A DNA stretch of 32,986 nt from Candidatus Nosocomiicoccus stercorigallinarum (lineage in GTDB: Bacteria > Bacillota > Bacilli > Staphylococcales > Salinicoccaceae): positions 1 to 32,986 of the forward strand of contig DWXM01000047.1 in assembly GCA_019119225.1 (NCBI GenBank). Reading direction: 5' to 3'. Shown here piece by piece: positions 65-24,453 of the stretch; positions within the stretch are counted from its first letter, which is position 1; each line of letters starts with the position of its first letter. Both the position numbers and the translations under genes were made by a program. The notes below the pieces were generated by a model. That model saw nothing but the letters and a program-made list of their open reading frames with translations, had not been told where the DNA came from and made no database searches.

Positions 65-2173
65 ATGAGTAAGATTAGAATTCATGAATACGCGAAACAA
101 CATAACTTACAAAGTAAAGAAGTCATCAATGCTTTAAAAGATAACGGTAAAGACTATAACTCACATATGCAGTCTTTAAATGATGACGATGTAAAATTAC
201 TAGATAGTAAGTTTGTTAAAAAAGACAATAATAAAGACAACAAGAAAAACAGCAATAAAAACAATAATCATAAACAAAATAATAAAAAACATAAAAATAA
301 CAAAAACAATAAAAAAGATCACAAGAAGAATAAGCATAATAACAACAACCAGAAAAACAATAAAAAAGACAATAAAAATAAGCAAGATAAACACTCTAAC
401 AACAAATCAATTGATTCAGGTGATCGTTCATTCACTTATGAAGAAGGAATCACTGTTGGAGATCTTGCAGAAAAAATCAATGTGGATGCATCTAAAGTTG
501 TAAAAGACTTATTTATGCTTGGTATTATGACAAATATTAACCAAAGTCTTGACGACGAAGCAGTTGAAATTGTAGCTGAAAACTATGAATTTACTGCTGA
601 AAAAGAAGAAGTCATTGATGATACAGACTTAGATATTTACTTCGATTTAGAAAACGAAGAATTAACAGAAGAACGTCCAGCAGTTGTTACAATTATGGGT
701 CACGTTGACCACGGTAAAACAACGTTACTCGACTCAATACGTAATGCAAATGTTACAGGTGGAGAAGCAGGCGGAATCACTCAGCATATTGGTGCATACC
801 AAATCCACTGGAACGATAAAGATATCACGTTCTTAGATACTCCTGGACACGAAGCATTTACAACAATGCGTGCACGCGGTGCTCAAGTGACTGACTTAAC
901 GGTACTTGTTGTAGCTGCAGACGACGGAGTAATGCCTCAAACAATTGAAGCATTAAACCACGCAAAAGCTGCCGGGACACCGATTATCGTTGCGGTAAAT
1001 AAAGTCGACAAACCAACAGCAAACCCAGACCGTGTAATGACTGAGTTAGGTGAACATGGACTATTCCCAGAAGACTGGGGTGGAGATACAATTTTCGTAC
1101 CACTTTCAGCATTAACAGGTGAAGGTATCGACGACTTACTTGAAATGATTACGTTAGTCAGTGAAGTTGAAGAGTTAAGCACGAAATCTGACCGTGATGC
1201 AATCGGTACAGTTATCGAAGCTGAACTTGACAAGTCACGTGGTCCTGTTGCGACGTTACTCGTACAACATGGTACACTGCACGTCGGAGATTCACTCGTC
1301 GTTGGTAACACGTTCGGTAAAGTACGTGCGATGACAAACGATTTAGGTGAAAGAATTCAAACTGCTGGTCCGTCATTACCAGTTGAAATTACTGGTCTTA
1401 ATGATATTCCTCAAGCAGGAGATCGTTTCGTCGTATTTAAAGACGACAAAAAAGCGAGAGCTGTTGGAGAAAAGCGTAAAGAAGACAAAATTATGCGCGA
1501 CCGCGAATCTACAAATAAAATTAGTCTAGATAACTTATTTGAAACGCTTAAAGAAGGCGAGTTAAAAGATTTAAACTTAATTCTTAAAGCAGACGTTCAA
1601 GGTACAGTTGAAGCACTCGCAGCATCACTTATGAAAATTGACGTCGAAGGAGTTAACATCCGTATTATTCATACAGGTGTTGGAGCAATTAACGAGTCAG
1701 ACGTTACACTTGCAAATGCATCAAACGCTATTATTATCGGATTTAACGTACGTCCAGATGCAAACGCACGTCGTACAGCTGAAAACGAAAAAGTAGATAT
1801 TCGTTTACACCGCGTCATTTATAAAGCACTAGAAGAAATCGAACAAGCAATGAAAGGTATGCTTGACCCTGAATATGAAGAGCAAGTGACTGGTTACGCA
1901 GAAGTACGTCAAACGATTAAAGTATCTAAAATTGGTACAATCGCTGGTTCTTACGTCACTGAAGGTAAGATTACTCGAGACTCAGGTGTTCGAGTGATCC
2001 GTGAAGGTGTTGTAGTCTTTGAAGGTGAAATCGACTCACTGAAACGATTTAAAGATGACGCTAAAGAAGTCGCTTCTGGATACGAATGTGGTATCACAAT
2101 TAAAAACTTTAATGACGTTAAAGAAGGCGACCAAATTGAAGCGTTCGAAATGGTTGAAGTTAGGAGAGTATAA
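65..2173 (+). CDS. infB: Translation initiation factor IF-2
   Basis: GTPase G1 [28 protein letters not shown]2 N-terminal domain. Start at ATG 65 ([11 protein letters not shown]) preferred over 44 because of AAAGGA RBS spacing. Confidence 0.97.
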
Positions 2174-15939: not shown

Positions 15940-16019
15940 AAATACCGATATTTGATTTATTGCTTTAAAAATTAATATTGTTTTTAAAAAATTGAAATTA
16001 ATATTTTAAAAATTGGCGA

Positions 16020-21498: not shown

Positions 21499-22365
21499 GT
21501 GGCAAAATTTAAAGATTTTAGAAATGATGTAAAGCCAAACTGGTGTCCTGGATGTGGTCACTTTAGTATACAGTCTGCCATTCAACGTGCCTCAGCAAAC
21601 GTTGGATTAGAGCCTGAAGACTTAGCACTCGTTAGTGGAATTGGATGTAGTGGACGCGTGTCAGGGTACATTCGTTCATACGGATTCCACGCAACGCACG
21701 GAAGAAGTCTTCCAATCGCTCAAGGAATTAAAATGGCAAATAAAGACCTCGAAGTTATCGCAACAGGTGGAGACGGAGATGGTTTTGCGATCGGTGTTGG
21801 ACACACAGTACACTCGATTAAACGTAATATCGATATGACTTACATTGTTATGGACAACCAAGTATATGGACTAACAAAAGGTCAAACGTCACCATCAAGT
21901 GCGAAAGGATTTGTGACAAACACAACGCCAAAAGGTTCGATTGAAAGTCCAATTGTTCCTGTATCAACAGCAATGGCGTCAGGTGCAACATTCGTTGCTC
22001 AAAGTGTTTCTTCAGATATTAAAGGTTTAACAGCAATTATCGAAGCTGCAATTAAACATGACGGATTCGCATTTGTAAACGTCTATAGTCCATGTGTCAC
22101 TTACAACAAAGTAAACACATATGACTGGTTTAAAGAACACGTCACAGACATCTCAGAAATCGAAGACTATGATCACGAAGACCGTAACAAAGTAATGAAT
22201 TACATCAATGAATACGAGGGTCTACTAAAAGGTATTTTATATCAAGATAAAAATTCTAAATCATATGCAAAACATATCGACGGATATTTAGATGAAGCAG
22301 TCGTGAACCATGATTTAAAATTAAAAGAAGAACAATTTAATGACCTTATGAATCATTTCGCATAG
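21499..22365 (+). CDS. korB: 2-oxoacid:ferredoxin oxidoreductase subunit beta
   Basis: WCPGCGHFSIQ, GIGCSGR, TPP-binding GGDGDGFAIG and MDNQVYGLTKGQTSPSS. Confidence 0.94.
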   Translation: MAKFKDFRNDVKPNWCPGCGHFSIQSAIQRASANVGLEPEDLALVSGIGCSGRVSGYIRSYGFHATHGRSLPIAQGIKMANKDLEVIATGGDGDGFAIGVGHTVHSIKRNIDMTYIVMDNQVYGLTKGQTSPSSAKGFVTNTTPKGSIESPIVPVSTAMASGATFVAQSVSSDIKGLTAIIEAAIKHDGFAFVNVYSPCVTYNKVNTYDWFKEHVTDISEIEDYDHEDRNKVMNYINEYEGLLKGILYQDKNSKSYAKHIDGYLDEAVVNHDLKLKEEQFNDLMNHFA

Positions 22366-22372
22366 TAAAAAG

Positions 22373-22405
22373 CGCAAATTAAGTATAGACTTAATTTGCG
22401 TTTTT
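22373..22405 (+). terminator. Rho-independent terminator after korB
   Basis: 11-bp stem CGCAAATTAAG / CTTAATTTGCG, 6-nt loop, T5. Confidence 0.92.
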
Positions 22406-22418
22406 GTTTTAGTGAGAT

Positions 22419-22444
22419 AAAAAGAAAGTATTAACTTTCTTTTT
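22419..22444. repeat. Perfect 11-bp inverted repeat (hairpin)
   Basis: AAAAAGAAAGT-ATTA-ACTTTCTTTTT; ends exactly where the repeat array begins. Confidence 0.75.
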
Positions 22445-22620
22445 GTAAACGAAATTGATTACTCGTTAACGTAAACGTCGTTTGTGTTAATTCGTTTTTT
22501 ATCTTTTAACGAAAAAGCGATTTCTGTTAAAACAATACTCATTTCGTTTACGTAAATACCTTAATCGTCAACAAAACGAAGAGGATGTTAACGAAAAAGC
22601 GATTTGTGTTAACGAACACT
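22445..22620. repeat. Degenerate tandem array of nine GTTAACGAA-type boxes at about 20.4-bp period
   Basis: Boxes at 22445 GTAAACGAA, 22465 GTTAACGTA, 22486 GTTAATTCG, 22505 TTTAACGAA, 22526 GTTAAAACA, 22546 GTTTACGTA, 22567 GTCAACAAA, 22587 GTTAACGAA, 22608 GTTAACGAA; spacings 20,21,19,21,20,21,20,21. Confidence 0.85.
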
Positions 22621-22731
22621 TCAATTCATATGTCTAAAACGAGAAATCCAATCATTTTTATCAGAAAGTTCTTAATAATTATGCTAAAATTAGTTTAAAG
22701 TAATTCGAAAACCGAAATAAGAGGTGTCACT

Positions 22732-24453
22732 ATGCGTACAGTCTTTAGTTATACGCTAAAGTATAAATGGATTATTATTATCGGGCTTTTACTCATGCTT
22801 GTAGAGCTTGCTGTTGAACTGATTCAGCCGCTATTTATTCGCGGAGTGATTGATGACGGTATTACAGTAAACAACTTAAATAACGTTTGGATGTATTTAG
22901 GTCTTATGTTGGCCGCTTCAATCATTTCAACGATTGCAGGAATTTTTAATACATACTTATCAAGTTATGCAACGAACGCGTTTGGTAATGATTTAAGAAA
23001 TGCGATTTTTAGACGAGTACAACATTTTACGTTAGAAACTCTGTCTAAATTTAATGGATCGACATTAATTACAAGATTGACTCAAGACGTTTTAATTTCA
23101 GAAATGTTAGTGTTTTTCGGGATGCGTATTTTACTTCGCGCACCGCTTCTTGTAATCGGGTCACTCGTCATGTCGTTTGTCGTTAACGTTAAACTTGGAT
23201 TTTATTTAACGCTACTGACACCAATTTTATTTGTATTTTTATTTGTCACAGCGAAAATGGGTGCAAAGATTTTTAGTCGTATTCAAAAACGACTCGATAA
23301 AATCAACCGCTTCTTCCAAGAAAATTTAAGCGGTATGTTATTAATTAAAGTAAATAACCGAGCAGAATATGAATCAGAACGGTTTAGTGATATCGCAGGT
23401 AAACTCCGTGATGATATGATTTTTGGACTTCGTTTAATGGAGTCGATTTTACCCGTATTATTACTTATTATGAACGGAAGTTTACTACTTGTGCTTTATG
23501 TATCATCTGATTTAATTCAAACAAATAACGTTCAAGTCGGTGAAGTTGTTGCGGTCATTAACTACGCGTTAAGAATGCAAGGTGGCTTCTCAATGTTTAG
23601 TTTCTTAATTATCTCAGCGACGCGCGCGAAAGCTTCAGCTGATCGTATTAGTGAAGTACTCCATGAGGATGTTGATGTATTAGATGACGGTAGAAAAATC
23701 GAACACACTGAAGGAAGCTCGGTCGAGTTTCAAGATGTATCTTTTAAATATGTAAATAGTGTTTCGAACATATTAGAAGACGTTTCCTTTAAAGTCGATA
23801 AAAATGAAACACTCGTCATTATGGGGGCGACTGGTTCTGGTAAAAGTTCTCTCGTTAACTTGATTCCAAGACTTTACGATGCAACAAAAGGTAATATCTA
23901 TGTGGATGGGAAAAATGTAAAAGACTGGAATGTGAACGAACTGAGAGATTTAATTGGTTATGTGCCACAATCTGCGGTGTTATTTACTGGGACGATATTT
24001 GAAAATATGCTCTGGGGAGATGAGTATGCGTCTGAAGGTGACGTATATGACTCGACGAGAAAAGCACAAGTTCATGAAAACATTATTCGTTTTGATCATC
24101 AGTACAACACTCAAGTCGGTCAGCGCGGGGTACAGTTATCTGGTGGACAAAAGCAACGTCTTTCGATTGCTCGAGCACTCGTGAAACGTCCATCTATTTT
24201 AATACTCGATGACTCAACAAGTGCATTAGATGCTACAACAGAGAACAGTCTATGGGAAGAAATGGACAATTTAAATGTCACGAGAGTAATCATTACTCAA
24301 AAAATTTCCACTGCTAAAACTGCTGATAAAATACTTCTTCTTGAAGAAGGAAAAGTATCCGCCATTGGGACTCATGACTCACTACTTTTAGACTCTGAAC
24401 TTTATCAGTCTATAGTAGAAAGTCAGAAGACAGGAGGGTCGTTTGATGATTAA
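22732..24453 (+). CDS. ABC exporter half-transporter with degenerate NBD (heterodimer subunit 1)
   Basis: TM domain plus NBD: Walker A GATGSGKSS, signature LSGGQKQR, Walker B ILILDDSTSALD (catalytic E to D), H-loop position TQKIST. Confidence 0.93.
   Translation: MRTVFSYTLKYKWIIIIGLLLMLVELAVELIQPLFIRGVIDDGITVNNLNNVWMYLGLMLAASIISTIAGIFNTYLSSYATNAFGNDLRNAIFRRVQHFTLETLSKFNGSTLITRLTQDVLISEMLVFFGMRILLRAPLLVIGSLVMSFVVNVKLGFYLTLLTPILFVFLFVTAKMGAKIFSRIQKRLDKINRFFQENLSGMLLIKVNNRAEYESERFSDIAGKLRDDMIFGLRLMESILPVLLLIMNGSLLLVLYVSSDLIQTNNVQVGEVVAVINYALRMQGGFSMFSFLIISATRAKASADRISEVLHEDVDVLDDGRKIEHTEGSSVEFQDVSFKYVNSVSNILEDVSFKVDKNETLVIMGATGSGKSSLVNLIPRLYDATKGNIYVDGKNVKDWNVNELRDLIGYVPQSAVLFTGTIFENMLWGDEYASEGDVYDSTRKAQVHENIIRFDHQYNTQVGQRGVQLSGGQKQRLSIARALVKRPSILILDDSTSALDATTENSLWEEMDNLNVTRVIITQKISTAKTADKILLLEEGKVSAIGTHDSLLLDSELYQSIVESQKTGGSFDD

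What the first reader, a model, noticed from the sequence alone, without database searches (positions are those of the whole stretch)
22445..22620. Phased array of nine GTTAACGAA-type boxes with a two-helical-turn period
Seen directly: nine similar boxes start at 22445, 22465, 22486, 22505, 22526, 22546, 22567, 22587 and 22608, with spacings 19-21 bp (mean about 20.4). The best units share a longer consensus, GTTAACGAAAAAGCGATTTGT (units 4 and 8 are nearly identical, unit 2 diverged). A weak tenth unit (GTCTAAAACGA) follows near 22632. All units share one orientation relative to the CGAA flank. The period puts each box on the same DNA face, which suits cooperative binding of one protein. Hypotheses (inference): operator array for the downstream ABC exporter, an iteron-like or parS-like nucleoprotein site, or one copy of a dispersed intergenic repeat family. 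The array sits between the korB terminator and the exporter promoter region and is not explained by any coding feature.
Basis: partly seen in the sequence, partly recalled or inferred. Interest (0 to 1): 0.8.

Follow-up and report, generated by a model that had tools for sequence, protein, structure and literature searches.

The report
Dispersed phased palindrome arrays in Nosocomiicoccus
The repeated boxes are one copy of a family of about a dozen DNA elements, each four palindromes locked at a 41-base rhythm behind gene ends, found so far only in the bacterial genus Nosocomiicoccus and apparently kept by selection as landing sites for a still unknown DNA-binding protein.

Summary
The nine boxes are real and not chance. 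Their unit is not the box. It is a 27-bp palindrome, (G/T)TTNAC(G/A)CAAA-n5-TTTG(C/T)GTNAA(C/A), present four times at centre spacings of exactly 40, 41 and 41 bp, plus a half-site upstream (22445). The array is one of about 11-13 in its own genome, and all three Nosocomiicoccus species held carry the family. It was not found in 154 other genomes of the order, 397 others of the class, phage or plasmid records, or (single-unit pattern) viral contigs.

Of 32 complete elements, 31 have exactly 40/41/41 bp. Two bases are invariant in 248 of 248 half-sites. At orthologous sites the half-site cores differ by 5-8%, centres by 31-49%, and length does not change. The two halves of a palindrome do not covary, so this looks like a DNA site for a dimeric protein, not an RNA hairpin. 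Elements lie at gene 3' ends, enriched between convergent genes; none lies between divergent genes. At korB the array stays with korB even in N. massiliensis, where two genes separate it from the exporter, so an exporter operator is unlikely.

Best reading: a genus-specific, sopC- or BIME-like architectural nucleoprotein site. Binding protein and function are inferred.

The parts
22438..22618 (+). whole element (about 180 bp), oriented by its 40/41/41 spacing
   Evidence: conserved columns run from -27 to +153 around U1 in 31 aligned elements
22445..22453 (+). half-site 0R (GTAAACGAA), upstream of U1
   Evidence: conserved position in most elements
22465..22491 (.). palindromic unit U1 GTTAACGTAAACGTCGTTTGTGTTAAT
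   Evidence: PWM score 26.2
22505..22531 (.). palindromic unit U2 TTTAACGAAAAAGCGATTTCTGTTAAA
   Evidence: PWM score 26.5
22546..22572 (.). palindromic unit U3 GTTTACGTAAATACCTTAATCGTCAAC; its right half is the 'variant' half (TT instead of AA at positions 9-10)
   Evidence: PWM score 23.7; exactly one variant half in 29 of 31 U3 units
22587..22613 (.). palindromic unit U4 GTTAACGAAAAAGCGATTTGTGTTAAC
   Evidence: PWM score 32.0
22368..22405 (+). intrinsic terminator of korB; the element starts about 30 bp after it
21499..22365 (+). korB (2-oxoacid:ferredoxin oxidoreductase beta subunit), the gene whose 3' end the array follows in all three species
   Evidence: PF02775, PF12367; synteny
22732..24453 (+). 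ABC exporter subunit; neighbour, not consistently linked to the array
   Evidence: PF00664, PF00005

Best explanation
The array is one member of a genus-specific family of about 180-bp DNA elements. Each holds four dyad-symmetric sites (27 bp, half-site TTNAC[G/A]NAAA) fixed 40/41/41 bp apart, preceded by a half-site. Shown: the family, its fixed geometry, selection on the half-site cores, absence of covariation between halves, and location at gene 3' ends. Inferred: one homodimeric sequence-specific protein binds each dyad. Four neighbouring dimers on nearly one DNA face (half-sites every 20-21 bp) assemble cooperatively into a nucleoprotein complex that wraps or bridges DNA. The complexes act as architectural or insulating sites at transcription-unit ends, in the way sopC repeats load SopB or BIME-2 elements load gyrase. 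Confidence is about 0.9 for 'dispersed family of DNA-level multi-dimer sites' and about 0.45 for the architectural function.
For: 31 of 32 complete elements in three species have exactly 40/41/41 spacing. T2 and A5 are invariant in 248 of 248 half-sites. In orthologous pairs the core columns diverge 5-8%, centres 31-49% and spacers 17-29%, with no length change in 149 bp (korB locus chosen by synteny, p about 1e-10). Halves of a unit do not covary (1032 pairs observed, 1058 +/- 12 permuted), and the RNA fold is not unusual (z -1.19). Tandem elements keep nearly the same 41-bp phase across their junctions (121-123 and 165 bp). No credible isolated units exist outside arrays in 637 kb. Arrays lie between convergent genes in 7 of 17 sites versus 22 of 222 background gaps (p = 0.0016) and in no divergent gap.
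Against: No binding protein has been identified and no binding or expression data exist. N. massiliensis has copies at sites that are empty in its congeners, so the family also spreads or is lost like a mobile repeat. Elements with decayed units were under-sampled by the PWM, although the korB locus was chosen by synteny alone. Absence of divergent-gap copies alone is not significant (p = 0.15). A spacing of 40.7 bp is 3.9 turns at 10.5 bp per turn, so exact same-face placement needs about 10.2 bp per turn.
Confidence: 0.5

Rival explanations
1. Non-autonomous mobile repeat (MITE-like): the palindromes are recognition sites of a transposase or recombinase, and the copies are selfish insertions tolerated behind terminators.
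For: Multi-copy, intergenic, with copies at sites that are empty in congeners. At one N. massiliensis site the element lies between two similar terminators where the congeners have one. Tandem copies with a 243-245 bp period.
Against: No clear terminal inverted repeats or constant target duplication beyond the palindromes. Old orthologous copies are still under strong constraint at cores and spacing in three species, whereas dead MITE copies should decay. No RAYT-type transposase (PF01797) in the three genomes; other transposase families were not tested. No phage or plasmid relatives.
Confidence: 0.25
2. Operator array for a transcription regulator (of the exporter in this window, or a regulon).
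For: Dyad sites with a strict consensus resemble repressor operators. In two of three species the array lies 118-119 bp upstream of the exporter start.
Against: In N. massiliensis two genes separate array and exporter. Seven of 17 arrays lie between convergent genes, where there is no promoter to control, and none lies between divergent genes. Isolated single operators are absent.
Confidence: 0.08
3. Structured RNA or mRNA-3'-end stabiliser (REP-like hairpins) or terminator cluster.
For: Palindromes would form hairpins, and the elements sit behind genes. One unit (L003 1543-1575) has a long perfect stem next to an A/T run.
Against: No compensatory covariation, fold energy not unusual, no Rfam match. 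The korB terminator already lies upstream, and fixed 41-bp spacing is not needed for RNA hairpins.
Confidence: 0.07
4. Chance or simple sequence drift in AT-rich intergenic DNA.
For: The finding was made by eye in AT-rich DNA.
Against: Shuffle tests, genome-wide family, orthologous conservation.
Confidence: 0.01

Closest known systems
BIMEs / REP (palindromic units) of Enterobacteriaceae and pseudomonads
   Same: Short palindromes in extragenic clusters with regular spacing, higher-order tandem repeats and many dispersed copies. BIMEs are known sites for IHF and gyrase (PMC2817692).
   Different: REPs preserve pairing by complementary mutation, bear GTAG-type tags, usually exceed 100 copies per genome and go with RAYT transposases (PMC2817692). 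Here there is no covariation, no such tag, spacing fixed to the base, about a dozen arrays and no RAYT.
sopC / parS(F) centromere of the F plasmid
   Same: Tandem repeats of 43 bp, with inverted-repeat sites for a protein (SopB/ParB) that nucleates a large nucleoprotein complex (PMC6238139).
   Different: sopC is one plasmid locus of twelve repeats with 16-bp sites. Here the family is dispersed over the chromosome, has four units of 27 bp and about 41-bp period, is highly diverged between copies, and no cognate gene is known.
Dispersed chromosomal organising sites (parS, matS, Noc/SlmA sites; recalled from general knowledge)
   Same: Sequence-specific dyads scattered over a chromosome and bound by one protein.
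   Different: Those are single short sites. Here sites occur only as phased groups of four.
Prokaryotic MITEs (e.g. Correia, RUP, ERIC)
   Same: Small non-coding intergenic repeats with dispersed copies.
   Different: No clear terminal inverted repeats or target duplication, and constraint persists on the internal sites of old copies.

Membership tests
REP/BIME | extragenic palindromes of 20-40 bp in regularly spaced clusters | tested here: met
REP/BIME | palindrome preserved by complementary changes (stem-loop) | tested here: not met
   pairing not above permuted halves
REP/BIME | associated RAYT (Y1_Tnp) transposase gene in the genome | tested here: not met
   PF01797 absent from G000-G002 (own genome 87% complete; controls ring)
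REP/BIME | GTAG/CGTC-type tag next to the palindrome | tested here: not met
   element consensus shows none
MITE | terminal inverted repeats and target-site duplication | tested here: inconclusive
   no consistent ends; one site lies between two similar terminators
MITE | presence/absence at orthologous sites | tested here: met
   at least two N. massiliensis sites are empty in both congeners
sopC/parS-like centromere | tandem, helically phased dyads for one dimeric protein | tested here: met
   (architecture only; the protein itself is inferred)
sopC/parS-like centromere | linked parAB-type genes and ParB binding | tested here: inconclusive
   no parAB-type gene was recognised beside the window array or among the flanking ORFs listed (most not run through Pfam); binding not testable here
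operator of the ABC exporter | array stays with the exporter promoter | tested here: not met
   in N. massiliensis it stays with korB
structured RNA family | covarying helices or an Rfam match | tested here: not met
CRISPR array | identical repeats with variable spacers of about 30 bp and cas genes | tested here: not met
   repeats diverged, spacers 13-14 bp; cas families were not searched genome-wide; the N. massiliensis genome report lists 0 CRISPR repeats (PMC3910558)

The most novel reading that the evidence does not exclude
A chromosome-wide multi-site nucleoprotein system not described before: an unidentified Nosocomiicoccus protein assembles as four phased dimers on each of about a dozen elements at transcription-unit ends, organising or insulating the chromosome, with site sequence and protein co-evolving within the genus (the N. 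massiliensis consensus is shifted at half-site positions 1 and 4).
Probability: 0.35. Interest if true: 0.8.

Novelty: new variant of a known kind. Interest (0 to 1): 0.62.

Why it matters
Dispersed palindromic repeats in bacteria are usually read as mobile debris or RNA hairpins. Here old copies keep their spacing to the base and their recognition bases over species-level divergence, without RNA covariation. That makes a protein-bound architectural role directly testable in a small (1.5 Mb) genome. It would also give a clean sequence handle for finding a genus-specific DNA-organising protein.

Tried and rejected
Box-by-box reading as same-orientation repeats: rejected, because GTTAAC is self-complementary and the true unit is a dyad. 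RNA element: no covariation, fold z -1.19, no Rfam hit. Exporter operator: synteny in N. massiliensis contradicts it. RAYT/REP membership: no PF01797. Phage or plasmid origin: no match in 50,697 phage or 72,556 plasmid records; a single-unit pattern gave no hit in viral contigs. Isolated units as a pointer to an autoregulated binding protein: the 24 candidates are low-scoring and nearly all inside coding ORFs. Analogous arrays of different sequence in a sister genus: a sequence-free dyad/period scan of 400 kb of G006 found nothing like the clear (25-27 bp, 41 bp) peak of Nosocomiicoccus; this is about a quarter of that genome, so not exhaustive. Literature searches for a described match found none. 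Chromosomal distribution: copies look mid-arm in G001, but n is too small to claim.

Full report
WHERE IT IS. The window is contig C24 of a 1.39 Mb, 92-contig draft. korB homologues place it in Nosocomiicoccus: N. massiliensis NP2 is 94% identical (its coordinates coincide with genome G002), and the near-complete genome G001 (1.55 Mb main contig) is 99% identical. The array lies between korB, whose intrinsic terminator is at 22368-22405, and an ABC exporter gene at 22732.

THE OBSERVATION. All nine boxes are present at the stated starts. GTTAAC is its own reverse complement, so the boxes look like same-orientation repeats, but alignment with other copies shows the unit is a dyad: (G/T)TTNAC(G/A)CAAA, about 5 bp, then its reverse complement. 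The window holds a half-site at 22445 and four 27-bp units starting at 22465, 22505, 22546 and 22587, with spacings 40, 41 and 41 bp. A tenth unit is not supported. Shuffling excludes chance: 0 of 2000 dinucleotide shuffles reach the phased-dyad score, and 2 of 2000 the best autocorrelation.

A DISPERSED FAMILY. A BLAST of the region against its own genome found other intergenic copies. Covariance models of the whole array (R1) and of one unit (R2) then found about 11-13 arrays in the own genome, and about 9-10 array loci in each of G001 and N. massiliensis, some tandem. R1 found no array in the other 154 genomes of the order or in 397 other Bacilli, under the stricter filters used for large sets. 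BLAST of the region found nothing in phage or plasmid records, and an exact pattern for one unit found nothing in viral contigs. The sister genus has a short korB-exporter gap with a terminator and no array, and 400 kb of it show no analogous array of any sequence.

GEOMETRY. In 37 loci of the three genomes plus the window, 31 of 32 complete non-overlapping elements have spacing exactly 40/41/41 and one has 39/41/41. The conserved element runs from about 27 bp before U1 to about 4 bp after U4, roughly 180 bp. Where elements are adjacent, the distance from the last to the next first unit is 121-123 or 165 bp, close to 3 or 4 x 41, so the phase continues. A sequence-free dyad score peaks only at period 41 for these elements (30.9 versus 22-24 at other periods), and 237 kb of background does not exceed 30.

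SELECTION. Among 248 half-sites, T at position 2 and A at position 5 are invariant, and position 3 is T in 235. In nine comparisons with N. massiliensis at five orthologous loci, core columns differ by 7-8%, centres by 43-49%, spacers by 28-29%; between own and G001 the values are 5%, 31% and 17%. There is no length change inside the 149 bp. The korB locus was chosen by synteny, not by motif, and shows the same pattern (4/64 core versus 36/61 centre plus spacer, p about 1e-10). Caveat: other loci were found by motif, which favours intact copies.

DNA, NOT RNA. If the dyads worked as hairpins, the halves should covary. They do not: 1032 Watson-Crick pairs observed, 1058 +/- 12 when right halves are permuted within unit type and species. 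The whole element folds as RNA no better than shuffles (z -1.19), and nothing matches Rfam. Independent variation of two half-sites around a fixed centre is what a symmetric dimer on double-stranded DNA would produce. U3 is special: in 29 of 31 elements exactly one of its halves carries TT instead of AA at positions 9-10, on either side. This remains unexplained.

LOCATION. Distinct loci were classified from flanking ORFs: 7 convergent, 10 tandem, 0 divergent of 17. The background in sampled G001 stretches is 22, 176 and 24. Convergent enrichment p = 0.0016; absence from divergent gaps alone p = 0.15. Many sit directly behind terminators, including those of korB, tmRNA and an rRNA operon. At korB the array keeps its place in all three species, although in N. 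massiliensis a SNF2-helicase gene and an orphan gene separate it from the exporter. Isolated single units outside arrays are absent in 637 kb.

MOBILITY. Most positions are shared by two or three species, but N. massiliensis has copies at sites empty in both congeners. At one of them the congeners have a single bidirectional terminator where N. massiliensis has terminator-element-terminator. So the family has spread or been lost within the genus. No consistent terminal repeats or target duplications were recognised, and no RAYT transposase is encoded.

MECHANISM. The best reading is that each dyad binds a dimer of one sequence-specific protein and four dimers, at half-site steps of 20-21 bp, assemble into one nucleoprotein complex. 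The fixed spacing, the invariants and the absence of lone sites support cooperativity. Placement at transcription-unit ends and absence from divergent gaps favour an architectural or insulating role over promoter control. The closest functional analogues are sopC of the F plasmid (twelve 43-bp repeats with inverted-repeat sites, PMC6238139) and BIMEs, which bind IHF and gyrase (PMC2817692). Membership of either is not claimed: REP/BIME features (complementary changes, tag, RAYT) were tested and not met, and par-type genes were not recognised next to the array. A MITE-like origin is compatible with the spread and cannot be excluded; it may be the origin of sites that now have a host function.

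VERDICT. Observation confirmed. Interpretation partly right: the dispersed-family and nucleoprotein ideas are supported, the exporter operator is not. The binding protein is unknown, and finding it is the decisive step.

Noticed in passing
L175 1815-3140 (own genome C23) versus L189 (G001): A pyridine-nucleotide-disulphide oxidoreductase gene lies between two arrays in the own genome; in G001 the same two arrays are adjacent without it, and N. massiliensis has only one array there. Genes may be gained or lost between arrays.
   Followed up: partly
L174 / C34: Tandem duplication of a permease gene (two 362-aa copies starting LN(I/M)KELLKFAFAYCG) with an array between the two copies.
   Followed up: no
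L084 5135-7253 (N. massiliensis): SNF2-type helicase gene and a 181-aa orphan (no Pfam match) lie between the korB array and the ABC exporter.
   Followed up: partly
own contigs C61, C64, C74; G002 contigs C15, C21, C25, C39, C48, C119: Draft contigs often end at or close to arrays, so copy number is probably underestimated by short-read assemblies.
   Followed up: no
U3 units of 31 elements: Exactly one half of U3 carries a variant half-site (TT at positions 9-10), usually the right half and sometimes the left; meaning unknown.
   Followed up: partly
G001 C1: Strong arrays lie at 351-732 kb and 1030-1482 kb, with none in the first 350 kb from the apparent origin nor around the terminus (about 870 kb by GC skew); numbers too small for a claim.
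   Followed up: partly
window 15964-16015: AT-rich 20-bp tandem repeat (2.5 copies) upstream of recA.
   Followed up: no
window 217-381: Lys/Asn-rich low-complexity tandem repeat inside the infB N-terminal region.
   Followed up: no
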